A stretch of 64,000 bases of DNA from Arenicola marina. Taxonomy: Eukaryota > Annelida > Polychaeta > Arenicolidae. Under the pieces are notes generated by a model. It was not told the DNA's origin. It saw only the letters and a program-made list of their open reading frames with translations, and searched no databases. This document shows, one piece after another, positions 1-64,000 of this stretch; position 1 is the stretch's first letter; every line of letters begins with the position of its first letter. Where the stretch lies: the NCBI GenBank assembly GCA_964019135.1, contig OZ025249.1, forward strand, positions 4,464,001 through 4,528,000. The letters run 5' to 3'. Position numbers and translations under genes: made by a program.

Positions 1-3000
1 CATATCATGGCCATTACCCCACCCCAACCTCCTCCCACTCCACCCCCACCACACCCATTACCCTGTCAGACGATATGCCCTTGCCTCAGAACCACATATC
101 ATGGCCATTACCCCACCCCAACCCCACCCATTACCCTGTCAGGGGATATACCCTTGCCTCAGAACCACATATCATGGCCATCACCCCACCCCAACCTCCT
201 CCCACCCCACCCCCACCACACCCATTACCCTGTCAGGGGATATACCCTTGCCTCAGAACCACATATCATGGCCATTACCCCACCCCACCCCAACCTCCTC
301 CCACCCCACCCCAACCCCACCCATTACCCTGTCAGACGATATACCCTTGCCTCAGAACCACATATCATGGCCATTACCCCACCCCAACCTCCTCCCACCC
401 CACCCCAACCCCACCCATTACCCTGTCAGGGGATATACCCTTGCCTCAGAACCACATATCATGGCCATCACCCCACCCCAACCCCACCCATTACCCTGTC
501 AGGGGATATACCCTTGCCTCAGAACCACATATCATGGCCATCACCCCACTCCAACCCCACCCATTACCCTGTCAGGGGATATACCCTTGCCTCAGAACCA
601 CATATCATGGCCATCACCCCACTCCAACCTCCTCCCACCCCACCCCCACCACACCCATTACCCTGTCAGACGATATACCCTTGCCTCAGAACCACATATC
701 ATGGCCATTACCCCACTCCAACCTCCTCCCACCCCACCCCCACCACACCCATCACCCTGTCAGGGGATATAACCTTGCCTCAGAACCACATATCATGGCC
801 ATTACCCCACTCCAACCTCCTCCCACCCCACCCCCACCACACCCATCACCCTGTCAGGGGATATAACCTTGCCTCAGAACCACATATCATGGCCATCACC
901 CCACCCTAACCCCACCCATTACCCTGTCAGGGGATATACCCTTGCCTCAGAACCACATATCATGGCCATTACCCCACTCCAACCTCCTCCCACCCCACCC
1001 CCACCACACCCATCACCCTGTCAGGGGATATAACCTTGCCTCAGAACCACATATCATGGCCATTACCCCACCCCACCCCCACCCATTACCCTGTCAGGGG
1101 ATATAATCTTGCCTCGGAACCATATATCATGGCCATTACCCCACCCCAACCTCCTCCCACTCCACCCCCACCACACCCATTACCCTGTCAGACGATATGC
1201 CCTTGCCTCAGAACCACATATCATGGCCATTACCCCACCCCAACCCCACCCATTACCCTGTCAGGGGATATACCCTTGCCTCAGAACCACATATCATGGC
1301 CATCACCCCACCCCAACCTCCTCCCACCCCACCCCCACCACACCCATTACCCTGTCAGGGGATATACCCTTGCCTCAGAACCACATATCATGGCCATTAC
1401 CCCACCCCACCCCAACCTCCTCCCACCCCACCCCAACCCCACCCATTACCCTGTCAGACGATATACCCTTGCCTCAGAACCACATATCATGGCCATTACC
1501 CCACCCCAACCTCCTCCCACCCCACCCCAACCCCACCCATTACCCTGTCAGGGGATATACCCTTGCCTCAGAACCACATATCATGGCCATCACCCCACCC
1601 CAACCCCACCCATTACCCTGTCAGGGGATATACCCTTGCCTCAGAACCACATATCGTGGCCATCACCCCACTCCAACCTCCTCCCACCCCACCCCCACCA
1701 CACCCATTACCCTGTCAGACGATATACCCTTGCCTCAGAACCACATATCATGGCCATCACCCCACTCCAACCTCCTCCCACCCCACCCCCACCACACCCA
1801 TTACCCTGTCAGACGATATACCCTTGCCTCAGAACCACATATCATGGCCATCACCCCACCCCAACCTCCTCCCACCCCACCCCAACCCCACCCATCACCC
1901 TGTCAGGGGATATACCCTTGCCTCAGAACCACATATCATGGCCATTACCCCACCCCACCCCAACCTCCTCCCACCCCACCCTAACCCCACCCATTACCCT
2001 GTCAGGGGATATACCCTTGCCTCAGAACCACATATCATGGCCATTACCCCACCCCACCCCCACCCATTACCCTGTCAGGGGATATACCCTTGCCTCAGAA
2101 CCACATATCATGGCCATTACCCCACCCCACCCCCACCCATTACCGTGTCAGGGGATATACCCTTGCCTCAGAACCACATATCATGGCCATTACCCCACCC
2201 CACCCCCACCCATTACCCTGTCAGGGGATATGCCCTTGCCTCAGAACCACATATCATGGCCATTACCCCACCTCACCCCCACCCATTACCCTGTCAGGGG
2301 ATATGCCCTTGCCTCAGAACCACATATCATGGCCATTACCCCACCCCACCCCCACCCATTACCCTGTCAGGGGATATACCCTTGCCTCAGAACCACATAT
2401 CATGGCCATTACCCCACCCCACCCCCACCCATTACCGTGTCAGGGGATATACCCTTGCCTCAGAACCACATATCATGGCCATTACCCCACCCCACCCCAA
2501 CCCATTACCCTGTCAGGGGATATGCCCTTGCCTCAGAACCACATATCATGGCCATTACCCCACCCCACCCCCACCCATTACCCTGTCAGGGGATATACCC
2601 TTGCCTCAGAACCACATATCATGGCCATCACCCCACCCCAACCTCCTCCCACCCCACCCCAACCCCACCCATTACCCTGTCAGACGATATACCCTTGCCT
2701 CAGAACCACATATCATGGCCATTACCCCACCCCAACCTCCTCCCACCCCACCCCAACCCCACCCATTACCCTGTCAGACGATATACTATTGCCTCAGAAC
2801 CACATATCATGGCCATTACCCCACCCCACCCCAACCTCCTCCCACCCCACCCCAACCCCACCCATTACCCTGTCAGACGATATAACCTTGCCTCAGAACC
2901 ACATATCATGGCCATTACCCCACCCCACCCCAACCTCCTCCCACCCCACCCCCACCACACCCATCACCCTGTCAGGGGATATACCCTTGCCTCAGAACCA

Positions 3001-3800
3001 CATATCATGGCCATTACCCCACTCCAACCTCCTCCCACCCCACCCCCACCACACCCATCACCCTGTCAGGGGATATAACCTTGCCTCAGAACCACATATC
3101 ATGGCCATTACCCCACCCCAACCTCCTCCCACCCCACCCCAACTCCACCCATTACCCTGTCAGGGGATATACCCTTGCCTCAGAACCACATATCATGGCC
3201 ATTACCCCACCCCACCCCAACCTCCTCCCACCCCACCCCCACCACACCCATCACCCTGTCAGGGGATATACCCTTGCCTCAGAACCACATATCATGGCCA
3301 TTACCCCACTCCAACCTCCTCCCACCCCACCCCCACCACACCCATCACCCTGTCAGGGGATATAACCTTGCCTCAGAACCACATATCATGGCCATTACCC
3401 CACCCCAACCTCCTCCCACCCCACCCCAACTCCACCCATTACCCTGTCAGGGGATATACCCTTGCCTCAGAACCACATATCATGGCCATCACTCCACCCC
3501 AACCCCACCCATTACCCTGTCAGGGGGTATACCCTTGCCTCAGAACCACATATCATGGCCATCACCCCACCCCAACCCCACCCATTACCCTGTCAGGGGG
3601 TATACCCTTGCCTCAGAACCACATATCATGGCCATCACCCCACCCTAACCCCACCCATTACCCTGTCAGGGGATATACCCTTGCCTCTGAACCACATATC
3701 ATGGCCATTACCCCACCCCAACCTCCTCCCACCCCATCCCCACCACACCCATCACCATGTCAGGGGATATACTCTTGCCTCGGAACCATATATCATGGCC
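1..3800. repeat. GC-rich minisatellite array, units about 73-99 bp
   Basis: Head-to-tail units share the core CATATCATGGCCAT, a variable C-rich run, then CCCTGTCAGG, GATATACCC and TTGCCTCAGAACCA. Short units are 73 bp; longer ones gain a C-rich insert of about 21-26 bp. The array is open at the left edge of the window. Its last unit, at about 3,720-3,800, diverges (TTGCCTCGGAACCATATATC) and runs into unique sequence. Long open frames on the plus strand (up to 680 codons of Pro/His-rich repeat) arise because stop codons are rare in this composition. I do not regard them as genes. On the minus strand each unit reads as an exon-like segment followed by a donor-like GTAATG or GTGATG and a G-rich stretch. 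Confidence 0.95.
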
Positions 3801-5869: not shown

Positions 5870-5874
5870 CAACC

Positions 5875-8935: not shown

Positions 8936-8939
8936 ATAT

Positions 8940-10233: not shown

Positions 10234-10400
10234 CAGCCAATGGGAATATGTTTAGAACGTCCACATTCCATAGGTTGCCACCCAGCCAATGGGAATATGT
10301 TTAGAACGTCCACATTCCATAGGTTGCCACCCAGCCAATGGGAATATGTTTAGAACGTCCACATTTCATAGGTTGCGACCCAGCCAATGGGAACGGTCCA
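10234..10400. repeat. 49-bp tandem repeat copying the ERMP1 C-terminal codons and stop
   Basis: The plus-strand unit begins CAGCCAATGGGA and contains TAGAACGTCCACAT. Copies start at 10,234, 10,283, 10,332 and 10,381 (the last is partial), exactly 49 bp apart. On the minus strand the first copy encodes the last residues of ERMP1 ([12 protein letters not shown]) and the TAA stop. The copies beyond it encode IGWVATYGMWTF followed by TAA, and lie in the 3' UTR. Confidence 0.92.
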
Positions 10401-10526
10401 TTCTGGGAAGGTTTCGATGTACTTTCGGAGCTCGGGGGTGTGCCGCTCCACCCCGTCCACCGTCAGGTAGTGGGCCCCGATGGCGATATCCAGAAGGCCG
10501 TCCTCCCCGGCTCCGTCAGAATCCAT
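10350..10526 (-). CDS. ERMP1: ERMP1 exon 14 (terminal coding exon)
   Basis: The acceptor TTTCTGTATCTAG precedes ATGGATTCTGACGGAG. The exon encodes a segment with DIAIGAHYL and [10 protein letters not shown], then ends MWTF-stop; this matches the ERMP1 C-terminus (IAAHYL ... FPDWTFPSAW in human). It joins exon 13 in phase 0 after a 7.3-kb intron. Its last 39 nt, including TAA, are the first copy of a 49-bp tandem repeat. Confidence 0.9.
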   Translation of the reverse strand: MDSDGAGEDGLLDIAIGAHYLTVDGVERHTPELRKYIETFPEWTVPIGWVATYEMWTF

Positions 10527-16500: not shown

Positions 16501-19500
16501 AGCCTATACTCTCGCCATCTTGCAAAGTGCCTATGGCGCGTCCCACATCCTTCAAAATTCCATATGAAGCATCAGTTTCACGAATCAATGGTACGTGGAG
16601 CAAACGAAAGGATCAGGTTGCAAGTCGTTAGCCGCCGCGTTATAACAATAACACACAGAACACGTCACAATAATTAACAGTGTCTGTCTGCAATACATGC
16701 TTTCAGAACAAATCGGTCCGCCATTTTTACTTATCCGCAAAAATGACCAACAAAAGGAACCAGATTCAAGCGTAGTGTTTTCTTTTCAAGTAACTATACA
16801 TTCCCATGAATAGCACAAAGGAACACGTCCCATAACGGCTTTGTCAGCGTGGACATCAATGAGACTCCGTGTTATTCCCCCGTCTACATAATTCCCCTCC
16901 GCGCCTTGTCCAACAAGCAAACTGTTTTTGATCGTAGAGCCTCTCTTTTACCTGCCCACTCCGGTCCATTATCCGGCTATACACCCCCACTCTCCGGCCG
17001 TCCCATGACTTCCGCCCTCCACCAACCACGTGGTCAGTCAATATACCCTGACATAAGCGTCTCATCGGCTGTGCACTGTATTGAGCTCAGCCCGTGTCAA
17101 CAGTTGACCGGAGCCGTGGCTGGGGGACACCAAGCATCGACGGGCGGGCCACAATGGCAGCAGGCACCATTCACAGCGCTGTTTGGTCAGGGATCGGGTC
17201 GGTTTGTAGTTCCCGCAACGCCCGCCACACCTGTCAAAATGGGGCCGGTCCAGTGCAGTCGCCATGGCAACAGTATGAAAGGCCTGACCAGCTAAATCTA
17301 GTAGTTGTATGCACCATTGCATTAGTGTACATTAAACAAATTACGAATTTATAGTTCGTCAATCAGAATCAGAATTTTAGGATATATTAATATACGGGTG
17401 ACGAAATCCCCCACGTTGCCTTTGGAATGACATTCTTTAAGATGCTATAATTTTTGAATTGAATCTTTTTACCGGGAGTGTAAAACAAGCCCCGACCATG
17501 TGCCAGTGACTGGGGTCTAACGAGACGTGGGGACAGCGGGAAGGCTATAGGATGCTAATAAGATGCTTTTAACATGGTATTGGGGAGGAGACCCATCCGT
17601 CACCATTGAACTGGGCTTGTCGTACTATGTACATACAGCGGCTGACACCCACAGACCCCCCCCTCACCCCCCACCCTCATACCCCTGGCCCCACGTAGAG
17701 CCGACCCCACCCCCGTCACAACCCACCCACCATGCGACCCACGGCTCAGGGGCCCGCATCGCACCGCCCTGCGCCACTAGAGACCGCCACCGTCTGACAG
17801 GGCCGGCCCCAGACTCACCTCCATATCGACCCAGAACTCGAAGGGCTTTTCGGGTTTTGTGCCGTACGAGTAGAAGACGAAGTAGTGCGGCCGCTGGACG
17901 TAAGAGGGCATGCTGGCGGGCGTGGGCTCCCCGTCAGCCAGGGACCAGTTAGCCAGGCGGCTGCCCTCCCTCGGCGACATGTATACGTTGACGTGACAGG
18001 GACCTGCGGGCAACGACATAGGTCTCCGCTATACGACAGCGCCAACTTACCCGACAACAGCTGGGCCGGTATGCATGCACCATACTTAGCCAATCCAAAT
18101 CTAGCTGACGCATTTTAAAACGGTTTTCCCGGCAATGATCAGACGGATACTACTCATCATAGAAATGTTAATAGGGGGATAATAACTAGCGATTCTCAAT
18201 ACTACGACTTTTTCAAGCGTGAAAGCCGGTTTCCGTTTGCAATTTGCGCCATTTTTATTACTAACTACACCAAATTGGGTAAATGTAACAACAATTTTTG
18301 GGTGCAAAATTTGAAAAAAATACCAGTATTTATAAAGCAGTATCTATTAATTAGAACCAGTTATTGTTAGCCGTTTATTATGAAAATTCTTATATTCAAA
18401 CCTGTCACAGCAAACGTCAGTCGCTGTCGCTTCTCGGCGACATCAGATCTCTCTACGAGTTGTAGTTCCGCCTTGGGAGTGACCTGGGGCTTCGGACCGG
18501 GTATGTAGTAAAACTCCCTGTGGGATAAAACAAGCAGTCACAAACAACAAGCCCGGTGAGCCTTCATGGGAGTGGCGGGGGGGGTGGGGGGCGTCCTTCA
18601 CCCAGCACATTATGACCGCAGCACTCCACAGGAAACCCCACCGTGTACTCATTAACTTATTATTAAATAAACACAGAAACAATAATACATGAAACTTTAA
18701 TGGCACTATTTAGACCTGAACTCTTATTAGCGGAAAATTTAAACGAATGCATGGGCAAAACAATATCGAAAACCTTAATACATGGGCGCAAAGCAAAGCA
18801 AAGCTGCCCTGGCCACGGATGAAGCATCTTATCGTCTGATGTCCATTCAGTTCTAGAGTCGTCGCGCCGTTCACGCTCGTAGATCATAACGCCCCGTCGC
18901 CAAATAAAATACAAGGAACGGGCAGGCCGCAGTGATTGGCTACAAGGCTGACTTACGTCATCATGGCGAGCAGTGGGAAGTAGAAGGGCAGGCCGCAGTA
19001 GGCCGCAGTGATTGGCTACAAGGCTGACTTACGTCATCATGGCGAGCAGTGGGAAGTAGAAGGGCAGGCCGCAGTAGGCCGCAGTGATTGGCTACAAGGC
19101 TGACTTACGTCATCATGGCGAGCAGTGGGAAGTAGAAGGGCAGGCCGCAGTAGGCCGCAGTGATTGGCTACAAGGCTGACTTACGTCATCATGGCGAGCA
19201 GTGGGAAGTAGAAGGGCAGGCCGCAGTAGGCCGCAGTGATTGGCTACAAGGCTGACTTACGTCATCATGGCGAGCAGTGGGAAGTAGAAGGGCAGGCCGC
19301 AGTAGGCCGCAGTGATTGGCTACAAGGCTGACTTACGTCATCATGGCGAGCAGTGGGAAGTAGAAGGGCAGGCCGCAGTAGGCCGCAGTGATTGGCTACA
19401 AGGCTGACTTACGTCATCATGGCGAGCAGTGGGAAGTAGAAGGGCAGGCCGCAGTAGGCGGCAGTGATTGGCTACAAGGCTGACTTACGTCATCATGGCG

Positions 19501-22500
19501 AGCAGTGGAAAGTAGAAGGGCAGGCCGCAGTAGGCGGCAGTGATTGGCTACAAGGCTGACTTACGTCATCATGGCGAGTAGTGGGAAGTAGAAGGGCAGG
19601 CCGCAGTAGGCCGCAGTGATTGGCTACAAGGCTGACTTACGTCATCATGGCGAGCAGTGGGAAGTAGAAGGGCAGGCCGCAGTAGGCCGCAGTGATTGGC
19701 TACAAGGCTGACATACGTCATCATGGCGAGCAGTGGGAAGTAGAAGGGCAGGCCGCAGTAGGCCGCAGTGATTGGCTACAAGGCTGACTTACGTCATCAT
19801 GGCGAGCAGTGGGAAGTAGAAGGGCAGGCCGCAGTAGGCCGCAGTGATTGGCTACAAGGCTGACTTACGTCATCATGGCGAGCAGTGGGAAGTAGAAGGG
19901 CAGGCCGCAGTAGGCCGCAGTGATTGGATACAAGGCTGACTTACGTCATCATGGCGAGCAGTGGGAAGTAGAAGGGCAGGCCGCAGTAGGCCGCAGTGAT
20001 TGGATACAAGGCTGACTTACGTCATCATGGCGAGCAGTGGGAAGTAGAAGGGCAGGCCGCAGTAGGCCGCAGTGATTGGCTACAAGGCTGACTTACGTCA
20101 TCATGGCGAGCAGTGGGAAGTAGGAGGGCAGACCGCAGTAGGCCGCAGTGATTGGCTACAAGGCTGACTTACGTCATCATGGCGAGCAGTGGGAAGTAGA
20201 AGGGCAGACCGCAGTAGGCCGCAGTGATTGGCTACAAGGCTGACTTACGTCATCATGGCGAGCAGTGGGAAGTAGAAGGGCAGACCGCAGTAGGCCGCGG
20301 TGATTGGCTACAAGGCTGACTTACGTCATCATGGCGAGCAGTGGGAAGTAGAAGAGCAGACCGCAGTAGGCCGCAGTGATTGGCTACAAGGCTGACTTAC
20401 GTCATCATGGCGAGCAGTGGGAAGTAGAAGGGCAGGCCGCAGTAGGCCGCAGTGATTGGCTACAAGGCTGACTTACGTCATCATGGCGAGCAGTGGGAAG
20501 TAGAAGGGCAGACCGCAGTAGGCCGCAGTGATTGGCTACAAGGCTGACTTACGTCATCATGGCGAGCAGTGGGAAGTAGAAGGGCAGGCCGCAGTAGGCC
20601 GCAGTGATTGGCTACAAGGCTGACTTACGTCATCATGGCGAGCAGTGGGAAGTAGAAGGGCAGGCCGCAGTAGGCCGCAGTGATTGGATACAAGGCTGAC
20701 TTACGTCATCATGGCGAGCAGTGGGAAGTAGAAGGGCAGGCCGCAGTAGGCGGCAGTGATTGGATACAAGGCAGACTTACGTCATCATGGCGAGCAGTGG
20801 GAAGTAGAAGGGCAGGCCGCAGTAGGCCGCAGTGATTGGCTACAAGGCTGACTTACGTCATCATGGCGAGCAGTGGGAAGTAGAAGGGCAGACCGCAGTA
20901 GGCCGCAGTGATTGGCTACAAGGCTGACTTACGTCATCATGGCGAGCAGTGGGAAGTAGAAGGGCAGACCGCAGTAGGCCGCAGTGATTGGCTACAAGGC
21001 TGACTTACGTCATCATGGCGAGCAGTGGGAAGTAGAAGGGCAGACCGCAGTAGGCCGCGGTGATTGGCTACAAGGCTGACTTACGTCATCATGGCGAGCA
21101 GTGGGAAGTAGAAGAGCAGACCGCAGTAGGCCGCAGTGATTGGCTACAAGGCTGACTTACGTCATCATGGCGAGCAGTGGGAAGTAGAAGGGCAGGCCGC
21201 AGTAGGCCGCAGTGATTGGCTACAAGGCTGACTTACGTCATCATGGCGAGCAGTGGGAAGTAGAAGGGCAGACCGCAGTAGGCCGCAGTGATTGGCTACA
21301 AGGCTGACTTACGTCATCATGGCGAGCAGTGGGAAGTAGAAGGGCAGGCCGCAGTAGGCCGCAGTGATTGGCTACAAGGCTGACTTACGTCATCATGGCG
21401 AGCAGTGGGAAGTAGAAGGGCAGGCCGCAGTAGGCCGCAGTGATTGGCTACAAGGCTGACTTACGTCATCATGGCGAGCAGTGGGAAGTAGAAGGGCAGA
21501 CCGCAGTAGGCCGCAGTGATTGGCTACAAGGCTGACTTACGTCATCATGGCGAGCAGTAGGAAGTAGAAGGGCAGGCCGCAGTAGGCCGCAGTGATTGGC
21601 TACAAGGCTGACTTACGTCATCATAGCGAGCAGTGGGAAGTAGAAGGGCAGGCCGCAGTAGGCCGCGGTGATTGGCTACAAGGCTGACTTACGTCATCAT
21701 GGCGAGCAGTGGGAAGTAGAAGGGCAGGCCGCAGTAGGCCGCAGTGATTGGCTACAAGGCTGACTTACGTCATCATGGCGAGCAGTGGGAAGTAGAAGGG
21801 CAGACCGCAGTAGGCCGCGGTGATTGGCTACAAGGCTGACTTACGTCATCATGGCGAGCAGTGGGAAGTAGAAGGGCAGGCCGCAGTAGGCCGCGGTGAT
21901 TGGCTACAAGGCTGACTTACGTCATCATGGCGAGCAGTGGGAAGTAGAAGGGCAGACCGCAGTAGGCCGCAGTGATTGGCTACAAGGCTGACTTACGTCA
22001 TCATGGCGAGTAGTGGGAAGTAGAAGGGCAGGCCGCAGTAGGCCGCAGTGATTGGCTACAAGGCTGACTTACGTCATCATGGCGAGCAGTAGGAAGTAGA
22101 AGGGCAGGCCGCAGTAGGCCGCAGTGATTGGCTACAAGGCTGACTTACGTCATCATGGCGAGCAGTGGGAAGTAGAAGGGCAGGCCGCAGTAGGCCGCGG
22201 TGATTGGCTACAAGGCTGACTTACGTCATCATGGCGAGCAGTGGGAAGTAGAAGGGCAGGCCGCAGTAGGCCGCAGTGATTGGCTACAAGGCTGACTTAC
22301 GTCATCATGGCGAGCAGTGGGAAGTAGAAGGGCAGGCCGCAGTAGGCCGCAGTGATAGGCTACAAGGCTGACTTACGTCATCATGGCGAGTAGTGGGAAG
22401 TAGAAGGGCAGGCCGCAGTAGGCCGCAGTGATTGGCTACAAGGCTGACTTACGTCATCATGGCGAGCAGTGGGAAGTAGAAGGGCAGGCCGCAGTAGGCC

Positions 22501-25500
22501 GCGGTGATTGGCTACAAGGCTGACTTACGTCATCATGGCGAGCAGTGGGAAGTAGAAGGGCAGGCCGCAGTAGGCCGCGGTGATTGGCTACAAGGCTGAC
22601 TTACGTCATCATGGCGAGCAGTGGGAAGTAGAAGGGCAGGCCGCAGTAGGCCGCAGTGATTGGCTACAAGGCTGACTTACGTCATCATGGCGAGCAGTGG
22701 GAAGTAGAAGGGCAGGCCGCAGTAGGCCGCGGTGATTGGCTACAAGGCTGACTTACGTCATCATGGCGAGCAGTGGGAAGTAGAAGGGCAGGCCGCAGTA
22801 GGCCGCAGTGATTGGCTACAAGGCTGACTTACGTCATCATGGCGAGTAGTGGGAAGTAGAAGGGCAGGCCGCAGTAGGCCGGAGTGATTGGCTACAAGGC
22901 TGACTTACGTCATCATGGCGAGCAGTGGGAAGTAGAAGGGCAGACCGCAGTAGGCAGCAGTGATTGGCTACAAGGCTGACTTACGTCATCATGGCGAGTA
23001 GTGGGATGTAGAAGGGCAGGCCGCAGTAGGCCGCAGTGATTGGCTACAAGGCTGACTTACGTCATCATGGCGAGCAGTGGGAAGTAGAAGGGCAGGCCGC
23101 AGTAGGCCGCAGTGATTGGCTACAAGGCTGACTTACGTCATCATGGCGAGCAGTGGGAAGTAGAAGGGCAGGCCGCAGTAGGCCGCGGTGATTAGCTACA
23201 AGGCTGACTTACGTCATCATGGCGAGCAGTGGGAAGTAGAAGGGCAGGCCGCAGTAGGCCGCAGGGATTGGCTACAAGGCTGACTTACGTCATCATGGCG
23301 AGCAGTGGGAAGTAGAAGGTCAGGCCGCAGTAGGCCGCAGTGATTGGCTACAAGGCTGACTTACGTCATCATGGCGAGCAGTGGGAAGTAGAAGGGCAGG
23401 CCGCAGTAGGCCGCAGTGATTGGCTACAAGGCTGACTTACGTCATCATGGCGAGCAGTGGGAAGTAGAAGGGCAGGCCGCAGTAGGCCGCAGTGATTGGC
23501 TACAAGGTTGACTTACGTCATCATGGCGAGCAGTGGGAAGTAGAAGGGCAGGCCGCAGTAGGCCACGGTGATTGGCTACAAGGCTGACTTACGTCATCGT
23601 GGCGAGCAGTGGGAAGTAGAAGGGCAGGCCGCAGTAGGCCGCAGTGATTGGCTACAAGGCTGACTTACGTCATCATGGCGAGCAGTGGGAAGTAGAAGGG
23701 CAGGCCGCAGTAGGCCGCAGTGATTGGCTACAAGGCTGACTTACGTCATCATGGCGAGCAGTGGGAAGTAGAAGGGCAGGCCGCAGTAGGCCGCAGGGAT
23801 TGGCTACAAGGCTGACTTACGTCATCATGGCGAGCAGTGGGAAGTAGAAGGGCAGGCCGCAGTAGGCCGCAGTGATTGGCTACAAGGCTGACTTACGTCA
23901 TCATGGCGAGCAGTGGGAAGTAGAAGGGCAGGCCGCAGTAGGCCACGGTGATTGGCTACAAGGCTGACTTACCTCATCATGGCGAGCAGTGGGAAGTAGA
24001 AGGGCAGGCCGCAGTAGGCCGGAGTGATTGGCTACAAGGCTGACTTACGTCATCATGGCGAGCAGTGGGAAGTAGAAGGGCAGGCCGCAGTAGGCCGCAG
24101 TGATTGGCTACAAGGCTGACTTACGTCATCATGGCGAGCAGTGGGAAGTAGAAGGGCAGGCCGCAGTAGGCCACAGTGATTGGCTACAAGGCTGACTTAC
24201 GTCATCATGGCGAGCAGTGGGAAGTAGAAGGGCAGGCCGCAGTAGGCCGCAGTGATTGGCTACAAGGCTGACTTACGTCATCATGGCGAGCAGTGGGAAG
24301 TAGAAGGGCAGGCCGCAGTAGGCCGCAGGGATTGGCTACAAGGCTGACTTACCGCATCATGGCGAGCAGTGGGAAGTAGAAGGGCAGGCCGCAGTAGACC
24401 GCAGTGATTGGCTACAAGGCTGACTTACGTCATCATGGCGAGCAGTGGGAAGTAGAAGGGCAGGCCGCAGTAGGCCGCAGGGATTGGCTACAAGGCTGAC
24501 TTACGTCATCATGGCGAGCAGTGGGAAGTAGAAGGGCAGGCCGCAGTAGGCCGCAGTGATTGGCTACAAGGCTGACTTACGCCATCATGGCGAGCAGTGG
24601 GAAGTAGAAGGGCAGGCCGCAGTAGACCGCAGGGATTGGCTACAAGGCTGACTTACGTCATCATGGCGAGCAGTGGGAAGTAGAAGGGCAGGCTGCAGTA
24701 GGCCGCAGTGATTGGCTACAAGGCTGACTTACGTCATCATGGCGAGCAGTGGGAAGTAGAAGGGCAGGCCGCAGTAGGCCGCAGTGATTGGCTACAAGGC
24801 TGACTTACGTCATCATGGCGAGCAGTGGGAAGTAGAAGGGCAGGCCGCAGTAGACCGCAGTGATTGGCTACAAGGCTGACTTACGTCATCATGGCGAGCA
24901 GTGGGAAGTAGAAGGGCAGGCCGCAGTAGGCCGCAGGGATTGGCTACAAGGCTGACTTACGTCATCATGGCGAGCAGTGGGAAGTAGAAGGGCAGGCCGC
25001 AGTAGGCCGCAGTGATTGGCTACAAGGCTGACTTACGTCATCATGGCGAGCAGTGGGAAGTAGAAGGGCAGGCCGCAGTAGGCCGCAGTGATTGGCTACA
25101 AGGCTGACTTACGTCATCATGGCGAGCAGTGGGAAGTAGAAGGGCAGGCCGCAGTAGGCCGCAGTGATTGGCTACAAGGCTGACTTACGTCATCATGGCG
25201 AGCAGTGGGAAGTAGAAGGGCAGGCCGCAGTAGGCCGCAGTGATTGGCTACAAGGCTGACTTACGTCATCATGGCGAGCAGTGGGAAGTAGAAGGGCAGG
25301 CCGCAGTAGGCCGCAGGGATTGGCTACAAGGCTGACTTACGTCATCATGGCGAGCAGTGGGAAGTAGAAGGGCAGGCCGCAGTAGGCCGCAGTGATTGGC
25401 TACAAGGCTGACTTACGTCATCATGGCGAGCAGTGGGAAGTAGAAGGGCAGGCCGCAGTAGGCCGCAGTGATTGGCTACAAGGCTGACTTACGCCATCAT

Positions 25501-40142: not shown

Positions 40143-40144
40143 AC

Positions 40145-51715: not shown

Positions 51716-52004
51716 GAGGCCTAGGTATTTACTCAAGAACTAAAATTAAGACGGAAAAAGCAAAAGGCTTAACTTTCTAGACCTGAATAAAAGCGAAGAG
51801 GTAGATTTTTTTTCAAATACGAAAGATACATAATAGTATGGACTTATATTATCGCAAGGAAAATTGCTCATTCAGATCGTTCTCCAAAAAAGTGCCATCT
51901 TTTTGTTACATCTATAGAAGTATCAAAGACACGAAACCTCAGCTCCTCGCAGTGTTTGATTTATGATAAGTGGCAAGAAGAAAAGACCAGTTGTCTGTCC
52001 CGTT

Positions 52005-52145
52005 ATCACTAAGGGCGTCTGTCACCCCAATCTAGTCCTCGTTATCACTGAGAGCGTCTGTCACCTCCCGTCTATTCCCCGTTATTACTAAGAGTGTCTG
52101 TCAACTCCCGTCTAGTCCTCGTAATCACTGAGAGCGTCTTTCATC
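52005..52145. repeat. 40-bp tandem repeat copying the TBC1D2B-like C-terminal codons and stop
   Basis: Minus-strand units are GACGCTCTCAGTGATTACGA, then GGACTAGACGGGAGTTGACA. About 3.5 units of 39-40 bp follow each other. The first encodes the final residues DALSDYED and the TAG stop. Later copies, with the stop region preserved, lie in the 3' UTR. Confidence 0.88.
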
Positions 52146-55100
52146 TCCCTTCGCGCACGCGCTCTGGTGGACGGCATTCTCTCGCTGAAGTGAGGGTCGT
52201 GGAAGCTCTGACGCAGAGCTTGAAGCTCTTCCATTTCGGCCTGCCAACCAAGAACAGTAAACTTACATCATGGATGACACGTGAGGGGAATAAAGGCATT
52301 CAATATAGTATAGTTTGTAAGCTGCTTTCACTTCATATGAATTACCAACTCGGGATACAACCCAAATATGCAATATTCTTATTATCGCCCGTACAGGTCA
52401 CATGAACTTCAGTCGTCTGCCCTAAAGCGAAAACGCTAAAACCCGGGAAATATCGGTGAGAACTGTCTATAATGGTATGATTATGGTCATTTATGAAACA
52501 AGTTACTTAAATAAACAAGAAAGGCACAAAACCTAACCTGGACGCGCTGTCTGTGAAGCTGCCTTTTCGCCACAATAGTTTTCATAGGGAATGGGTTGAT
52601 TCCATTGAAAGCAATCTGAAACACACCCAGAGAAATACATAACATATTCTAACAACTATTGTCAACGCAATTACAATGCTATTAACCATTTCTGGCGTAT
52701 CAAAAGTTTCACACACAAAACCACCCTTAGAATAAGTAAGAATAATTTCTTCCCAATTGTTCATTAAAATGAATATAAAATAGTAAGAACCAACTACTAC
52801 CAAGGTACAATCCCAGAGCTATCGGTGATATCTTTACTGATATATTATCTACAGGTAAGTCATAAAGCAAAAGCGACTTTATCGGAGGAAGAAATTCGAA
52901 CCACCGGTCCATGCACGTTTTCATTTAATACATGGCTGGAAAAAGTGTACTCTTTCACCTCTATCACAAGTTGGAAAACAGAGTTAAAGGTAATATATTA
53001 AATTGTCCTCACAGGTATAGATTGTTGTCTCTAGATGTGTATTTCATTATTGCGGCTAAAGTTGTAATTGATATTATCTTTGATAAATTTTTCATATGAA
53101 CGCACAATTTCTAAATCGAGCGAATAAGTATTTAGCTTTCGCTCTTGTCGCGAGTAACTGTGATTCCAATACACTTCAGGAAATATAATACGTGTTCTTG
53201 CGACAATGAACGGATTATATGATTATTAGCATAATGGGATGAGACCCATATTTGAAGTATTTCTCCCGTCAGCGTGCGCAAAGTCGTAGACTTACAGAGT
53301 GGCGAGATGAATGATAATGAAATGTAAACATTTCTTTAGAACAGAACGACACTAGATGACGTCACACCACGCGTTGTTGTATTAAATCCAGGTCGCTTCG
53401 CCACTTGAGACAAAACGCGAGGTTTTCTTGACTTCCTTACCTCTGCGAGTGTGTTGATGTCGGTCAGGTTCTCGCCCAGACAGCGCAGTGCGCGATGAAG
53501 GTCAAGGCTGTTATTTATCTGCAGCAGCTCTTCCTCCTTCCACTTGAAGGCGGCCACGGCAAACCGGAACAACACCTACATCAACAAAGGGTGCACCACT
53601 CCCTGATTATAACACATACGGGTAGATATGGGACACCACTCGATCTGATTTGATAGGAGTTCAACGGCACTTCTGCCTGTAAAACTATATCGTGTCCTGG
53701 ATACCACTCCATAACATGTCCATTTAGATCTATTCATGTGAGAAACGATAACAGCGACTTTATACACAACCTGCGTCAATTGTGAAGAAAAGGTTCAAAC
53801 AAGGCCTAACACTTCTGGGATCTTATTCAGGGTATGTGCGCACAAACACACTATTGCAAATGAAAAACAGCATGCGATCCACTGATGTTCCATCGCTAAG
53901 ATTCCGTTAATTAATTCATTTGATTTATTAATATAATAGTGAGAAATGTAGCGATGTTACATGTAATGTCAGGTCTGACCTTTGATCCTTCGAAGAGGAA
54001 GACGTCCCAGATCCGAAGGTAAGTCTCCACCGGGATGTTGTCCACAAAGATGGTCATGAACCAGTTGAAGGTGAACAGCGAGATGTCCATCATTTGACTG
54101 ATTAGGTGACTGTGTAGCTTGGGAACTTTCTCTGATGTCAAGTCCTTCATTACCCGCTGGTGGCGAACACAAAGTGATATTAACATTTACTTAATCTCCC
54201 TTCTTTGTTTTAGCGTCTTTCAACTATTCTTGTAGAAGGCTATAGTTATTCCAATTAACTTATTATTATTAACTATATTATTTCACATGGGAGTTAAGAA
54301 GCCCCTGGCTGTACTGACCTGGTCCACGTGGGCGTCAATAAGCCCCTGGCTGCACTGACCTGGTCCATGTGGGCGTCAACAAGCCCCTGGCTGTACTGAC
54401 CTCGTCCGCGTGGACGTCAATAAGCCCCTGGCTGTCCTGACCAGGTCTGACCAGGTCCACGTGGGCAACAATAAGCCCTTGGCTGTACTGACCAAGTCCA
54501 CGTGGGCAACAATAAGCTCCTGGCTGTACTGACCTCGTCCACGTGGACGTCAATAAGCCCCTGGCTGTCCTGACCAGGTCTGACCAGGTCCACGTGGGCA
54601 ACAATAAGCCCTTGGCTGTACTGACCAAGTCCACGTTGGCGTCAATAAGCCCCTGGCTATCCTGACCAGGTTTGACCAGGTCCACGTGGGCAACAATAAG
54701 CCCTTGGCTGTACTGACCTCGTCCACGTGGGCGACAATAAGCCCCTGGCTGTACTGACCTCGTCCACGTGGGCGACAATAAGCCCCTGGCTGCACTGACC
54801 AGGTCCACGTGGGCAACAATAAGCCCTTGGCTGTACTGACCAAGTCCACGTTGGCGTCAATAAGCCCCTGGCTATCCTGACCAGGTCTGACCAGGTCCAC
54901 GTGGGCAACAATAAGCCCTTGGCTGTACTGACCAAGTCCACGTGGGCGTCAATAAGCCCCTGGCTGCACTGACCTGGTCCACGCGGGCGTCAATAAGCCC
55001 ATGGCTGTCCTGACCAGGTCCACGTATGCGTCAATAAGCCCCTGGCTGCACTGACCTGGTCTACGTGGGTGTCAATAAGCCCCAGGCTGCACTGACCTGG

Positions 55101-58100
55101 TCCACGTGGGCGTCAATAAGCCCCAGGCTGTACTGACCTGGTCCACGTGGGCGTCAATAAGCCCCTGGCTGCACTGACCTGGTCTACGTGGGTGTCAATA
55201 AGCCCCTGGCTGCACTGACCTGGTCTACGTGGGTGTCAATAAGGCCCCCAGGCTGTACTGACCTGGTCCACGTGGGCGTCAATAAGCCCCTGGCTGCACT
55301 GACCTGGTCCACGTGGGCGACAATAAGCCCTTGGCTGCACTGACCTGGTCCACGTGGGCGTCAATAAGCCCCTGGCTGCACTGACCTGGTCTACGTGGGT
55401 GTCAATAAGCCCCTGGCTGCACTGACCTGGTCTACGTGGGTGTCAATAAGGCCCCCAGGCTGTACTGACCTGGTCCACGTGGGCGTCAATAAGGCCCCCA
55501 GGCTGTACTGACCTGGTCCACGTGGGCGTCACTAAGCCCCTGGCTGTACTGACCTGGTCTACGTGGGCGTCAATAAGCCCCTGGCTGCACTGACCTGGTC
55601 CACGTGGGCGTCAACAAGCCCCTGGCTGCACTGACCTGGTCCACGTGGGCGTCAACAAGCCCCTGGCTGCACTTACCTGGTCCACGTGGGCGATAATAAG
55701 GCCCCCTGGCTGCACTGACCTGGTCCACGTGGGCGTCAACAAGCCCCAGGCTGCACTGACCTGGTCCACGTGGGCGTCAATAAGCCCCTGGCTGTACTGA
55801 CCTGGTCCACGTGGGCGTCACTAAGCCCCTGGCTGCACTGACCTGGTCCACGTGGGCGTCAATAAGCCCATGGCTGCACTGACCTGGTCCACGTCGGCGT
55901 CAATAAGCCCCTGGCTGCACTGACCTGGTCCACGTGGGCGTCAATAAGCCCCTGGCTGCACTAACCTGGTTCACGTGGGCGTCAATAAGCCCCTGGCTGC
56001 ACTGACCTGGTCCACGTGGGCGACAATAAGCCCTTGGCTGCACTGACCTGGTCTACGTGGGTGTCAATAAGGCCCCCAGGCTGTACTGACCTGGTCCACG
56101 TGGGCGTCAATAAGCCCCTGGCTGCACTGACCTGGTCCACGTGGGCGTCAATAAGCTCCTGGCTGCACTGATCTGGTCCACGTCGGCGTCAATAAGCCCT
56201 TGGCTGTACTGACCTGGTCTACGTGGGCGTCAACAAGCCCTTGGCTGCACTGACCTGGTCCACGTGGGCGTCAATAAGCCCCTGGCTGCACTGACCTGGT
56301 CCACGTGGGCGTCAATAAGCCCCTGGCTGCACTAACCTGGTTCACGTGGGCGTCAATAAGCCCCTGGCTGCACTGACCTGGTCCACGTGGGCGACAATAA
56401 GCCCTTGGCTGCACTGACCTGGTCTACGTGGGTGTCAATAAGGCCCCCAGGCTGTACTGACCTGGTCCACGTGGGCGTCAATAAGCCCCTGGCTGCACTG
56501 ACCTGGTCCACGTGGGCGTCAATAAGCTCCTGGCTGCACTGATCTGGTCCACGTCGGCGTCAATAAGCCCTTGGCTGTACTGACCTGGTCCACGTCGGCG
56601 TCAATAAGCCCCTGGCTGTACTGACCTGGTCCACGTCGGCGTCAATAAGCCCTTGGCTGTACTGACCTGGTCCACGTGAGCGTCAATAAGCCCCTGGCTG
56701 CACTGACCTGGTCCACGTCGGCGTCAATAAGCCCCTGGCTGTACTGACCTGGTCCACGTCGGCGTCAATAAGCCCTTGGCTGTACTGACCTGGTCCACGT
56801 GGGCGTCAATAAGCCCCTGGCTGTACTGACCAGGTCCATGTGGGCGTCAACAAGCCCCTGGCTGCACTGACCTCGTCCGCGTGGACGTCAATAAGCCCCT
56901 GGCTGTCCTGACCAGGTCTGACCAGGTCCACGTGGGCGTCAATAAGCCCCTGGCTGCACTGACCTGGTTCACGTGGGCGTCAATAAGCTCCTGGCTGCAC
57001 TGATCTGGTCCACGTGGGCGTCAATAAGCCCCTGGCTGCACTGACCTGGTCCACGTCGGCGTCAATAAGCCCCTGGCTGCACTGACCTGGTCCACGTGGG
57101 CGTCAACAAGCCCCTGGCTGCACTGACCTGGTCCACGTGGGCGTCAATAAGCCCTTGGCTGAACTGAACAGGTCCACGTGGGCGTCAATAAGCTCCTGGC
57201 TGCACTGATCTGGTCCACGTGGGCGTCAATAAGCCCCTGGCTGCACTGACCTGGTCCACGTCGGCGTCAATAAGCCCCTGGCTGCACTGACCTGGTCCAC
57301 GTGGGCGTCAACAAGCCCCTGGCTGCACTGACCTGGTCCACGTGGGCGTCAATAAGCCCTTGGCTGAACTGAACAGGTCCACGTGGGCGTCAATAAGCCC
57401 CTACCTGCACTGAACAGGTCCACGTGGGCGTCAATCATCCCCTGGCTGCACTGATCTGGTCCACGTGGGCAACAATAAGCCCTTGGCTGTACTGACCTGG
57501 TCCACGTGGGCGTCAATAAGCCCCTGGCTGTACTGACCAGGTCCACGTGGGCGTCAACAAGCCCCTGGCTGCACTGACCTGGTCCACGTGGGCGTCAACA
57601 AGCCCCTGGCTGCACTGACCTGGTCCACGTGGGCGTCAACAAGCCCCTGGCTGCACTGACCTGGTCCACGTGGGCGTCAACAAGCCCCTGGCTGCACTGA
57701 CCTGGTCCACGTGGGCGTCAACAAGCCCCTGGCTGTAGTACTGGTTGGGCATGATGTACTCGACGATGGCCACGAGACACCAGAAAGCCTCCTCCTCCTC
57801 CAGGAAGAGCAGCGCGATGGCCGCCAGCCGGTTCAGTCCCTAGAACACAGTGTCATCTTGGCATCACACAGGCGGGCCTACACATGGCCAGACTATCCTC
57901 GACCCGTTCCCTAGACGCCACATGTCAGTCTATATGGCCCGTCCACACGTAATGAATCAAAACAAACAATGCCAACACCGCTTTGCAATTCAAATGAGAC
58001 AATACCCAAAACCCGAAGCTGGTTTTTCACTCATATTAGACTTTAAACCATGTGACAATTTCATCCAGCTATTTATATAAATCTACTTTGAACAGTGACG

Positions 58101-61100
58101 TTTACCACCTCACCTAGCTCCAGATCAAGCTGGCAATACACATTCCTTCACACAAACTTACGTATCCTGGGTGACAGTCATTGGCTTAAGTTAACGTGTA
58201 ATCATTGGACGTAATCCGAGTGGCATGGTTCCATCCCCGGTGTTTGTAGGGACAACGATTGACCGGCACTCCCATCCACTGAACAACGCCAACCCGTTTC
58301 CCGTTGTCATACAATGTAGACTGGTCACTAGATGTTGCATAAAGGATCGAATAAACCACTTGGACCAGTTGAGTCGGAGTTGATTAGTTGATGAACAATT
58401 CATGGGGAGTTTAATGTCCTCACCTGGCAGTAACCGATGTCTGGATTGTGAGCGGCGAAGGCAGACAGAATATTGCGCAGTTTAGGAATGCTTTCTGAGT
58501 CCATCTTTTCGTAGTTCTTGTGATTGGGCAATGTCCGCAACAGATCCAGTTCAATCTACAAATGCATAAGATATATATGCCAAAAAAATCCTATTTTGTG
58601 ATTTTTTTGGTCAGCAAAGCATTTTGAGATACTGGATGCTGTTTCTTATCTGGAGTAAAGTTCAGTAGCAAGGGAAACTGAATGATGAACAGATGAAACA
58701 GAAACAGACGAAAGCAGGAGCACAACAAAGGTAGACCTTTTCCAACCATAAGAGGCCTACACTGTCACAGCTCACCACATATAGCATTATTCCTAACATC
58801 CCACATGTAACAAATAACCATGATAATTCCACTGGACGTTTCTTGGCCTGACCTGTTTGGCCGACACATCTAAGGGAGAGCCCTGGGTGGCCATCCTGAG
58901 GACCTTCGTGTAATAACCCGCCTCATGCACAGCCCGCTCGTCACGCGACTGCAGGTCCACACAGCTGAAAGGACGACGAAACAATGTCACCACAGGTCAC
59001 ACGCCGACTGGTTATAGAAGCTGGGCAACACGTCCATATCAACCCCGGTCGTTATTGATATATTATAACGTTATACAACACACAGAATATAATAACCTTA
59101 ACGCTCTTATCCAGCAAAGTTTGCACCTGGACAACCTATTAAAACTCATTAGTTATATATAAATATGGCTGCATCCCCAAACATTTTCAAGATACGGAAT
59201 GATCATTTGATTTGCGGAGTTACTGTTACAACGTAAACAAGCATTTTGTGGATCATAGTCACATACTCTTCATTATGTTGTATGCAATATGTCCTAAAGA
59301 TACATAATGAATGAGGGATAAATGAGAGTGAACGAATGAATTTCTTAATGAATGAGAGTGAAAGAATGAATTTCTTAATGAATGAGAGTGAACGTATGAA
59401 TTTCTTAATGAATGACAGAATACAGAATAACGTTCATGAGTGAGGGTGAAAGATCCTGTAGAAACAGAATAATGTTAATGAGTGAGAGTGAAAGATCCTG
59501 GAGATACAGAATAACGTTAATGAGTGAGAGTGAAAGATCCTGTAGAAACAGAATAATGTTAATGAATGAGAGTGAAAGATCCTGTAGAAACAGAATAATG
59601 TTAATGAATGAGAGTGAAAGATCCTGGAGATACAGAATAACGTTAAAGAGTGAGAGTGAAAGATCCTGTAGAAACAGAATAATGTTAATGAATGAGAGTG
59701 AAAGATCCTGGAGATACAGAATAATGTTAATGAAAGAGAGTGAAAGATCCTGTAGATACAAAATAATGTTAATGAATGAGAGTGAAAGATCCTGTAGAAA
59801 CAGAATAATGTTAATGAATGAGAGTGAAAGATCCTGGAGATACAGAATAACGTTAAAGAGTGAGAGTGAAAGATCCTGTAGAAACAGAATTATGTTAATG
59901 AATGAGAGTAAAAGATCCTGGAGATACAGAATAATGTTAATGAAAGAGAGTGAAAGATCCTGTAGAAACAGAATAATGTTAATGAATGAGAGTGAAAGAT
60001 CCTGTAGAAACAGAATAATGTTAATGAATGAGAGTGAAAGATCCTGGAGATACAGAATAACGTTAAAGAGTGAGAGTGAAAGATCCTGTAGAAACAGAAT
60101 ATAATGTTAATGAATGAGAGTGAAAGATCCTGGAGATACAGAATAATGATAATGAAAGAGAGTGAAAGATCCTGTAGATACAGAATAATGTTAATGAAAG
60201 AGAGTGAAAGATCCTGTAGATACAGAATAATGTTAATGAATGAGAGTGAAAGATCCTGTAGATACAGAATAATGTTAATGAATGAGAGTGAAAGATCCTG
60301 GAGATACAGAATAATGTTAATGAAAGAGAGTGAAAGATCCTGTAGATACAGAATAATGTTAATGAATGAGAGTGAAAGATCCTGTAGATATAGAATAATG
60401 TTAATGAAAGAAAGTGAAAGCTGCGTACAACATCCAGATGCGCTTCCTGTGTTTAGACGGGATTCCCATCCGGATGAGCGCCTTGAGTTCTGGAGTCCGG
60501 GACAGCGGCCGGTCCCCAAGACTGGCCAGGTAGTTCTCCCACTTCAGGTAGGTCGACACCTCCTTCTCCGCCGACTGACGGGAAACATGTCGAGAACCAA
60601 GTTAACCACGCCGCAAGTAGCGATAATTTACAGTCACAGAGAGAAATATATCATGTGTTTCACACGGTGCCACAGGATACCTGAGGCTCGTCGCTTCCCA
60701 TCGTTATGTTAACAGTCGGGAGTGGTTTGATAACAAAAGTTGTGGCGCTTATGTTTACTACTACCTGGATATCGTTTCGAGAGACATAAATTAATGAATG
60801 GGGAAATGTTAACATAACATTTCCCATTGGCAGCGACATATTAAATTGTGTTGTCCACAGAGGTGATCAGCTCATGCTTGGCATGTCAAAGATGGGATAA
60901 CTTACATTTGTATTGGCGAGAAGTTGGTCTGATCGTCTTGTCAGGGACTCCACCCTGGCCTCCACATCAACTCTGGCATCCTGAGACACCACCAGGAACC
61001 CGTACTGGTCGTACTGCGTGCTGCAACAACGGCTCTCATGTATGCCTGGTGCATTGGTTTAAGTGCGAGATGGGTTTATTGTCTGCCTTCGATTAAAGCC

Positions 61101-63192: not shown

Positions 63193-64000
63193 CTACAGCG
63201 AGATTGTACAACACACGGTACCAGCATGTGGCATCGTCCAGTACCCATCGGTAGTACCCACATGGCACAACGCTGACGTCACTAAACACCCAACAGATTC
63301 TCCTCCGTTTCCATTGTTACGACATTCGGCGGGTTTCTTACCATGCAGGCAGTAAGCAAGCATCCACCCACATGCAGACAATTTTCCTAATCAAATGCAC
63401 GATTGGTTCTGTACATAGCTTGATTAGTGCAAAGAAAGCGCTAACCATTAAAGATCTGACACATTGTAAACCCCACAGCTCACTGAGGCTCACGGTGGCG
63501 GAGGCAATGCTACCTGCAGTACCCGTGCCTTCAACGCTCGGTTCGTCAGGCCAAACACCAAATAACATATCGCGTATATTCCGGGAGGAAACTTAGTGTT
63601 AAATGAACCAGCCGTCCTACCGACCAGCGAAGAAAGCAATAGGAGAGAGAGGCTACCGGTGAGGCTGGACTTCCCCCTTACACCATCGCGACCATGAAGA
63701 TCTCACCCGAGGAGCGGATCACACAAGGTCAGGGCTGAGCTAAGTCAGCCGTGCAGCCCTGCATCCCAGCGTCACTCACTCGCCGCCCTTACTGACGCCA
63801 TCTATGGCAAAGGAGACCAGTCCAAAAGAAAACCAATCCCAAAGCAACCAGACCATATCATGGACGCGACTTAGTGCAGAAAGCTGACCTCAGATCGCGG
63901 CCACCTGGGTTCACGAGACTGACCGAGTTTAGGGTGACGGTGAGGTGAGGGTAAGGTGAGGGTAAGTGGACCACCTGTCTCTTCGCGTGTCCTCTCAGTT
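63193..64000. other. Sequence upstream of exon A to the window edge
   Basis: Exon A starts in phase 1, so another coding exon must lie upstream, but I found no convincing one here. A minus-strand frame at 63,338-63,568 has no match I know and no donor of the right phase. GGTGAGGGTAA is repeated near 63,940-63,965. Confidence 0.4.

What the first reader, a model, noticed from the sequence alone, without database searches (positions are those of the whole stretch)
1..64000. Rule-like association of tandem arrays with functional exon edges
Listed together: donors of ERMP1 exons 8 and 11 and TBC exon F; the intron start after TBC exon C; the acceptor side of ERMP1 exon 10; the stop-codon ends of ERMP1 and TBC1D2B; probably 3,756. 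Five different genic landmarks carry arrays of unrelated sequence, while mid-intron arrays are fewer and more decayed. I recall reports of amphioxus minisatellites spanning exon-intron boundaries, but I could not verify them. A possible mechanism is replication- or transcription-coupled slippage at R-loops or at U1-bound sites. A possible function is buffering of U1 or suppression of premature polyadenylation.
Basis: inference. Interest (0 to 1): 0.9.

Follow-up and report, generated by a model that had tools for sequence, protein, structure and literature searches.

The report
Tandem repeats grown from exon ends
In this marine-worm genome, stretches of DNA that straddle the 3' end of an exon (a 5' splice site or a stop codon) have been copied head to tail, in one case more than a hundred times; the effect is known from lancelets as 'mirages' and is common enough here to test how such repeats start and how splicing copes with them.

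Summary
The core observation holds; the 'rule' and the amphioxus setting do not. Of 25 tandem-array loci in the window, 5 contain an exon's 3' edge within the repeat unit (donors of ERMP1 exons 8 and 11, donor of a TBC1D2-family exon, stop codons of both genes). Two more only abut an edge; 18 are elsewhere; no exon was found at 3,756. COX1 places the organism in Annelida (92% to Pilargis), not lancelets. In three donor arrays 279 of 290 complete units keep GT; donor columns diverge nearly as much as the rest. In 334 kb of this genome (84 known or predicted exons, 140 arrays) 11 arrays contain an exon 3' edge against 2.2 expected under a GC-weighted null (P 1.4e-5); outside the window 6 against 1.5 (P 0.004), but P 0.056 with blind exon calls. 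Acceptor-spanning: 1 against 2.2. Best reading: active tandem duplication, tolerated where the first copy of the signal is used (donor, stop), plus an unexplained excess at exon 3' edges. Structurally these are 'mirages'; new are the phylum (as far as the held papers show), the size (124 copies, 9.4 kb), stop-codon cases and the 3'/5' asymmetry. U1 buffering and R-loops get no support.

The parts
30090..33551 (-). Donor-spanning array (mirage) at ERMP1 exon 8: 41-bp unit, about 84 copies; first copy = last 37 nt of exon 8 + GTAA
   Evidence: first copy supported as coding by alignment to Owenia, Lingula and other ERMP1 proteins; all 82 reported genome matches lie at this locus
33515..33692 (-). 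ERMP1 exon 8
18924..28354 (-). Donor-spanning array at ERMP1 exon 11: 76-bp unit, about 124 copies; first copy = last 50 nt of exon 11 + 26 nt of intron
   Evidence: all 124 reported genome matches lie at this locus
28305..28507 (-). ERMP1 exon 11
54284..57735 (-). Donor-spanning array at TBC exon f: 41-bp unit, about 83 copies; first copy = last 34 nt of exon + 7 nt of intron
57702..57839 (-). TBC1D2-family exon f (Rab-GAP TBC domain)
10234..10393 (-). Stop-codon-spanning array of ERMP1: 49-bp unit, 3.3 copies; first copy holds the last 44 nt of the coding sequence including TAA (10352-10350)
10350..10526 (-). ERMP1 last exon (exon 14)
51999..52149 (-). Stop-codon-spanning array of the TBC gene: 40-bp unit, 3.8 copies; first copy holds the last 38 nt of the coding sequence including TAG
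52112..52240 (-). TBC gene last exon
59420..60420 (-). Array abutting the donor of TBC exon c (exon end 60429): 42-bp unit, about 24 copies, starting at intron base +9; does not clearly include the donor
29037..29176 (-). Array before ERMP1 exon 10 (exon start 29029): 32-bp unit; TRF reports 29082-29176, and a decayed last copy read by eye supplies the pyrimidine tract but not the AG

Best explanation
These are 'mirage'-type minisatellites. A short tandem duplication arises across the 3' edge of an exon, then grows by slippage or unequal exchange, in the largest cases to about 80 to 124 copies. The exon-proximal (first) copy stays the working exon end because splicing uses the first donor and translation the first stop, so later copies lie in the intron or 3' UTR and are nearly neutral. 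The same event across an acceptor or inside an exon usually changes the product and is removed, which gives the 3'/5' asymmetry. Shown: the structure; reported matches of the two units tested lie only at their own locus; the first copy in ERMP1 is coding by homology; excess of arrays containing exon 3' edges; none for acceptors; no frame constraint. Inferred: first-signal tolerance. Open: why exon 3' edges exceed GC-matched non-exon sequence about 5-fold; I infer a mutational bias there, cause unknown.
For: Unit = exon end + start of intron in each donor case, first copy in the exon. The parts of exons 8 and 11 that lie in the first unit align without gaps to ERMP1 of Owenia, Lingula and Lineus. 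All reported genome matches of the E11 query (124) and the E8 query (82) lie at their own locus, though the tool scores only the best candidates. Enrichment: 11 of 140 arrays hold an exon 3' edge against 2.21 expected with GC weighting (P 1.4e-5); outside the window 6 of 116 against 1.52 (P 0.004); acceptors 1 against 2.24; 3' against 5' Fisher P 0.005. Further cases outside the window: UPF2 exon f, a TMTC exon, a predicted exon upstream of and in line with the TBC gene, the stop codon of a probable MTG1/YlqF-type GTPase. Of 12 listed edge arrays 3 have a unit length divisible by 3, about what no constraint gives. GT intact in 81 of 84, 124 of 124 and 74 of 82 complete units, donor columns diverging 0.016, 0.008, 0.050 against 0.028, 0.013, 0.055 for the rest (no test run).
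Against: Tolerance alone does not predict an excess over introns, so the model needs an extra, unexplained bias. One acceptor-spanning array that includes the AG exists (UPF2, L036:5720-6750, 82 bp x 12.6), and PMC3087553 describes one in amphioxus, so the first-signal rule is not absolute. At looser distance there is no asymmetry: of 46 codon-score segments in the C1 sample, 5 3' ends and 5 5' ends lie within 60 bp of an array face (random 3.3% per end); acceptors within 10 bp of an array in C1: 3 against 1.05, P 0.09. With blind exon calls the replicate is 5 of 43 donors, P 0.056 (2 of the 43 lie in the window). The C1 sample alone gave 3 of 85 arrays against 0.89 (P 0.06). No RNA data were available, so use of the first donor is not shown.
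Confidence: 0.55

Rival explanations
1. Chance plus tolerance: about a third of this genome is tandem array, genes are dense with exon edges, and some arrays fall on an edge and survive; there is no true preference.
For: 117,411 of 334,000 sampled bases lie in arrays. Inside the window the short arrays show no excess (2 of 16 against 1.04). The random C1 sample alone (P 0.06) and the blind replicate (P 0.056) are not significant. In 75 array units of the C1 sample donor motifs are at most weakly raised: mean upper-tail p 0.443, 13% at p<=0.05, none of the 13 arrays of at least 1 kb (against array-free sequence).
Against: Pooled 11 against 2.21, P 1.4e-5; outside the window 6 against 1.52, P 0.004, with GC weighting; 5' edges give 1 against 2.24 under the same null; 3 of 4 window arrays of at least 1 kb span a donor, P 3.5e-4; 10 of 92 segment ends near an array against 3.3% random.
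Confidence: 0.22
2. Functional decoys: the repeated 5' splice sites bind U1 and buffer it, or suppress premature polyadenylation, and are kept by selection.
For: 279 of 290 complete copies of the real donor keep GT in three introns, and donor columns diverge a little less than the rest in all three.
Against: The difference is small (0.016 against 0.028, 0.008 against 0.013, 0.050 against 0.055; no test run), and in E8 it owes much to two variable columns outside the donor. Stop-codon arrays are not explained. Most exons have no array.
Confidence: 0.06
3. Transcription- or R-loop-coupled slippage at exon-intron junctions creates the duplications.
For: The 3'/5' asymmetry (11 against 1 of 84 exons, Fisher P 0.005) follows the direction of transcription, which tolerance alone would also give. 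GC skew is positive in 8 of 12 edge arrays.
Against: R-loops want G-rich non-template strands; GC skew on the transcript strand runs from -0.54 to +0.52, is about zero or negative in the three largest arrays (-0.28, -0.05, +0.07), and one array is 18% GC.
Confidence: 0.1
4. Assembly artefact: collapsed or mis-joined repeats.
For: Only one assembly was read; array lengths in a single assembly can be wrong.
Against: Units differ by scattered substitutions rather than being identical; TRF reports 0% indels for the E8 and E11 arrays and 3% for TBC f; short two- to four-copy cases (TMTC, the ERMP1 and TBC stop codons) do not depend on array length.
Confidence: 0.03

Closest known systems
Amphioxus 'mirages' (minisatellites across exon-intron boundaries; Adh3, globins BflGb6/BflGb9, PGBD5, troponin C)
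   Same: Tandem repeats whose unit spans an exon-intron boundary, at donors or acceptors, with AG/GT signals inside many copies (passages of PMC3087553, and PMC3902484).
   Different: Here in an annelid; up to 124 copies and 9.4 kb, while the passages I read report 6 and 3 repeat units (two haplotypes of BflGb6) and a tandem triplication (PGBD5); stop-codon ends as well as splice sites; counted against a null; arrays containing the edge prefer exon 3' edges.
Intron gain by tandem genomic duplication (PMC4974935, PMC2891723: search listing only; the AGGT/Rogers model as cited in PMC3087553, passages)
   Same: A tandem duplication copies splice signals.
   Different: There the copied signals make a new intron; here existing introns or UTRs lengthen and no new intron was shown, though the UPF2 acceptor array would be a candidate to look at.
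Ordinary minisatellites
   Same: Unit length, homogenised copies, and a mild preference for higher-GC sequence (weights).
   Different: The founding position is not random with respect to exon 3' edges in the pooled sample.

Membership tests
mirage (tandem repeat spanning an exon-intron boundary) | Repeat unit contains both exon and intron sequence of the same boundary | tested here: met
   E8 37+4 nt, E11 50+26 nt, TBC f 34+7 nt
mirage (tandem repeat spanning an exon-intron boundary) | Can occur at donor or acceptor | tested here: met
   Donors in the window; one acceptor case in UPF2, L036:5720-6750
mirage (tandem repeat spanning an exon-intron boundary) | Normal mRNA despite copied splice signals | not testable with these tools
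   No transcript data; only the open ERMP1 reading frame across all 14 exons
mirage (tandem repeat spanning an exon-intron boundary) | Length instability between haplotypes or somatically | not testable with these tools
   One assembly only
   ERMP1 nearest Owenia and a jgi protein, Branchiostoma belcheri 40%; COX1 92% to Pilargis wolfi, the best-scoring hits annelid
dispersed satellite or transposed repeat | Same unit at other loci | tested here: not met
   All reported matches of two queries, 124 (E11) and 82 (E8), lie at their own locus; only best candidates are scored by the tool; TBC f query not answered, other units not tested
R-loop-driven repeat | Consistent G-rich non-template strand | tested here: not met
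   GC skew positive in 8, negative in 4 of 12 arrays, -0.54 to +0.52

The most novel reading that the evidence does not exclude
Exon 3' edges (5' splice sites and stop codons alike) are true seeding sites of minisatellites in phyla as far apart as annelids and lancelets: a boundary-specific mutational process keeps copying the coding-to-noncoding edge, and this is a main route by which introns and 3' UTRs grow in such genomes. Introns with 80 to 124 near-perfect copies of the genuine donor would then be natural experiments showing that 5' splice-site choice is governed by position rather than by sequence.
Probability: 0.3. Interest if true: 0.8.

Novelty: new variant of a known kind. Interest (0 to 1): 0.6.

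Why it matters
Introns that hold up to 124 near-identical copies of the working 5' splice site, in genes that presumably must still be spliced, make an open question directly testable: how the right donor is chosen when sequence gives no clue. If the excess at exon 3' edges holds genome-wide, it also points to a mutational process tied to gene boundaries and to a route of intron growth shared by distant animal groups. It also warns gene-prediction pipelines, because decoy donors and exon ends fill these introns.

Tried and rejected
Tried and rejected or superseded: (a) the amphioxus setting, dropped. (b) First window null tests had a wrongly placed ZRANB2 exon; one search replaces them. Scripts failed; one search replaces 114. 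(c) Annotation-free test of donor motifs in array units of the random C1 sample: for 75 arrays mean upper-tail p 0.443 and 13% at p<=0.05; for 13 arrays of at least 1 kb mean 0.315, none at p<=0.05 (against array-free sequence); at most a weak signal. (d) 'Arrays never include the acceptor AG': true for the three acceptor-side arrays I looked at in L008, L010 and ERMP1 exon 10, but broken by the UPF2 acceptor array in L036. (e) 3,756: no exon predicted. (f) Papers outside lancelets: none found in searches of the held library; the earthworm metallothionein paper (passages) has intron minisatellites, but the passages I saw do not describe units across a splice site. The 2002 paper on Adh minisatellites is known to me only by recall and through the passages; the DOI that I tried (from recall) is not held. 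(g) Exon edges: 29 window exons set by hand from homology, the rest from the predictor (trained on the window exons; some of its calls are surely not real exons) and from UPF2 homology. I dropped one blind prediction (L010:953-988, an array copy of an exon end) and moved four blind edges: L008 acceptor, UPF2 exon g donor, L019 donor (still spanning), MTG1-like donor to stop (still spanning). The dropped L010 piece and the L008 edge were the only two blind acceptor hits, so these two changes favour my asymmetry; unchanged, the blind count is 10 of 72 against 2 of 72, Fisher P 0.03. UPF2_n9 was placed by hand only and its donor is uncertain. L036 was chosen because it continues UPF2, not at random. 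Without L019 and UPF2_n9 the result is 9 against 2.21 (P 5e-4) overall and 4 against 1.52 outside the window (P 0.07, Poisson). UPF2 exon h is not counted, although its array copies the exon end. (h) ZRANB2, TBC1D2B, MTG1 and UPF2 names rest on my recall; Pfam or NCBIfam support: TBC domain and Ran-BP zinc finger, YlqF below cut-off (no Pfam hit), MIF4G (one hit just over, one just under its cut-off) and TMTC. The L019 and upstream-TBC exons had no Pfam hit and L008 only one below cut-off. (i) Confidence in the best explanation was lowered from 0.60 to 0.55, and chance raised to 0.22, when the check brought (no asymmetry at loose distance) into the account.
Full report
What the window is. G000 is an 867-Mb assembly of 762 contigs and the window is C2:4464001-4528000. 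The spliced ERMP1 model (14 exons, 892 aa, open throughout) matches Owenia 45%, Lingula 44%, Lineus 42% and Branchiostoma belcheri 40% (best 120 of 1582 hits listed), and a tree puts it nearest Owenia and a jgi protein, away from Branchiostoma (the fork next to it is weak). The COX1 gene on contig C762, read with code 5, is 92% identical to Pilargis wolfi, and the next best-scoring hits are annelids, mostly Phyllodocida, with molluscs lower in the list. So this is an annelid, probably a phyllodocid near Pilargidae. Genes in the window: ERMP1 (minus, 38807 to 10350), a ZRANB2-like gene (plus, about 44061 to 46632 and beyond) and a TBC1D2-family gene (minus, stop at about 52112). TBC and Ran-BP zinc-finger domains were confirmed by Pfam; the gene names beyond that are recalled.

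What is there. Tandem Repeats Finder gives 69 rows, which I merged into 25 array loci. Five contain an exon 3' edge inside the unit. ERMP1 exon 8 ends ...GGCAGAG|GTAA and the 41-bp unit is the last 37 nt of the exon plus GTAA, about 84 copies. ERMP1 exon 11: 50 nt of exon plus 26 nt of intron, about 124 copies, 9.4 kb. TBC exon f: 34 plus 7 nt, about 83 copies. The stop codons of ERMP1 (49 bp, 3.3 copies) and of the TBC gene (40 bp, 3.8 copies) are also inside units. The array after TBC exon c starts at intron base +9, and the one before ERMP1 exon 10, with a decayed last copy, ends about 6 bp short of the exon and leaves out the AG. The remaining 18 touch no known edge. The array at 36-3801 belongs to a longer one (-7071 to 3731) with no predicted exon nearby.

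Is the first copy really exon? For ERMP1, yes by homology. In an alignment with nine ERMP1 proteins the end of exon 8 ([12 protein letters not shown], inside the first unit) and of exon 11 ([15 protein letters not shown]) align with Owenia, Lingula and Lineus without gaps. An upstream GTGAGG used instead would drop 14 residues and break the phase with exon 9 (my reading). For TBC exon f the same was seen only against the recalled human protein.

Are the copies special? In the three big donor arrays GT is intact in 81 of 84, 124 of 124 and 74 of 82 complete units. Mean divergence of the nine donor columns is 0.016, 0.008 and 0.050, against 0.028, 0.013 and 0.055 for the rest of the unit; slightly lower each time, no test run. 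I read this as homogenised sequence rather than selection on the donor. All reported matches of the E11 query (124) and the E8 query (82) lie at their own locus (the tool scores only the best candidates; the TBC f query did not complete). Unit length has no frame constraint (3 of 12 edge arrays divisible by 3) and GC skew no common sign (8 positive, 4 negative).

Is it more than chance? I collapsed every array to one founding unit and asked how often a unit of that length would span an exon edge if placed at random outside exons. In the genic part of the window: 5 of 20 observed, 1.42 expected, P 0.011. At least 1 kb: 3 of 4 at donors, 0.18 expected, P 3.5e-4. Shorter arrays: 2 of 16, 1.04 expected, P 0.28. 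Acceptors: 0, 0.68 expected.

Independent sequence. I fetched 21 stretches of 10 kb of contig C1 (one at its start and 20 at even steps), 50 kb beside the window, and one further 10-kb stretch chosen because it continues UPF2. Arrays fill 117,411 of 334,000 bases. First look: of 46 codon-score segments in the C1 sample, 10 of 92 ends lie within 60 bp of an array face against 3.3% random, equally at 3' and 5' ends, 5 and 5. A codon-and-splice-site predictor, trained on the window exons, recovered 17 of 29 known exons, 15 with the exact 3' end. With its 43 further calls (2 in the window) and the 29 known exons, 10 of 72 3' edges and 2 of 72 5' edges lie inside an array end; background 4.8% per edge; P 0.0024 for all 3' edges, 0.056 for the 43 blind ones (5 of 43); 3' against 5' Fisher P 0.03. 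After corrections by homology and reading frame (listed in Tried and rejected), with a GC-weighted null, 84 exons and 140 arrays: 3' edges 11 against 2.21 (P 1.4e-5); outside the window 6 of 116 arrays against 1.52 (P 0.004); 5' edges 1 against 2.24; 3' against 5' Fisher P 0.005. Without two doubtful edges: P 5e-4 and 0.07. The C1 sample alone is 3 of 85 against 0.89, P 0.06, and acceptors within 10 bp there are 3 against 1.05, P 0.09. Donor motifs in C1 array units are at most weakly raised. So the enrichment is real in pooled data, modest in reach, and far from a rule; the asymmetry concerns arrays that contain the edge, not arrays that lie near it.

New cases found on the way. UPF2 exon f: the array of 27-bp units takes in the last 2 bases of the exon. 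UPF2 exon h: units carry remnants of the exon end, and the far copy still holds about 45 nt of it. TMTC exon: 37-bp unit, 2 copies. A predicted exon upstream of and in line with the TBC gene: 51-bp unit, 11 copies. The stop codon of a probable MTG1/YlqF-type GTPase: 22-bp unit, 33 copies. All three coding ends that I placed in this genome (ERMP1, TBC, the GTPase) carry such an array; the ends of ZRANB2 and of the other genes were not placed. Against the pattern: a UPF2 exon has an acceptor-spanning 82-bp unit in 12.6 copies, AG included.

Mechanism. Shown: first copy in the exon, later copies downstream, excess of arrays containing exon 3' edges, none for acceptors. Inferred: in-place origin; duplications across a donor or stop are nearly neutral because the first signal is used; across an acceptor they usually are not. 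This explains the asymmetry but not the excess over GC-matched sequence, for which I infer an unexplained mutational bias. U1 buffering and R-loops are not supported.

Known or new. Tandem repeats across exon-intron boundaries were named 'mirages' in lancelet Adh3 and reported in globins (PMC3087553, passages) and PGBD5 (PMC3902484, passage), both edges included; those passages say they do not disturb normal splicing. I found no report outside lancelets in the held library, which lacks most subscription journals. New here: an annelid, longer arrays than those passages report, stop-codon cases, a counted excess and the 3'/5' asymmetry. I therefore file it as a new variant of a known kind.

Noticed in passing
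334 kb sampled from contigs C1 and C2 (window, L001-L021, L031-L036): About 35% of the sampled sequence lies in tandem arrays, several of 5 to 10 kb: an array-rich animal genome.
   Followed up: partly
L036:5720-6750 (minus strand gene UPF2): Acceptor-spanning array, 82-bp unit x 12.6 with the AG included; the first copy also holds a short GT...AG-like stretch (GTGTTA...CTGCAG), so it could be looked at as a case of intron creation.
   Followed up: partly
L008:3426-8598: A 5.2-kb array of 34-bp units forms the pyrimidine tract up to 3 bp before a predicted exon and leaves out the AG.
   Followed up: partly
window 36-3801, continuing about 7.1 kb to the left: A 10.8-kb array with mixed periods (73, 94, 167, 193, 287 bp), which suggests higher-order structure; no exon predicted near it.
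   Followed up: partly
L034:7276-7958: Open frame of tandem coding-like repeats (KPGIPMDI[L/F]ARPASS) on the plus strand.
   Followed up: no
L035:5689-6693 (minus) and L035:8327-8785 (plus): GPCR-like sequences (Pfam 7tm_1 in two of the three pieces) in opposite orientation close together, with closely similar N-terminal parts.
   Followed up: no
window 59321-60420: Array units after TBC exon c carry a pyrimidine tract and CTACAG|G, i.e. repeated acceptor-like sequences near a donor.
   Followed up: no
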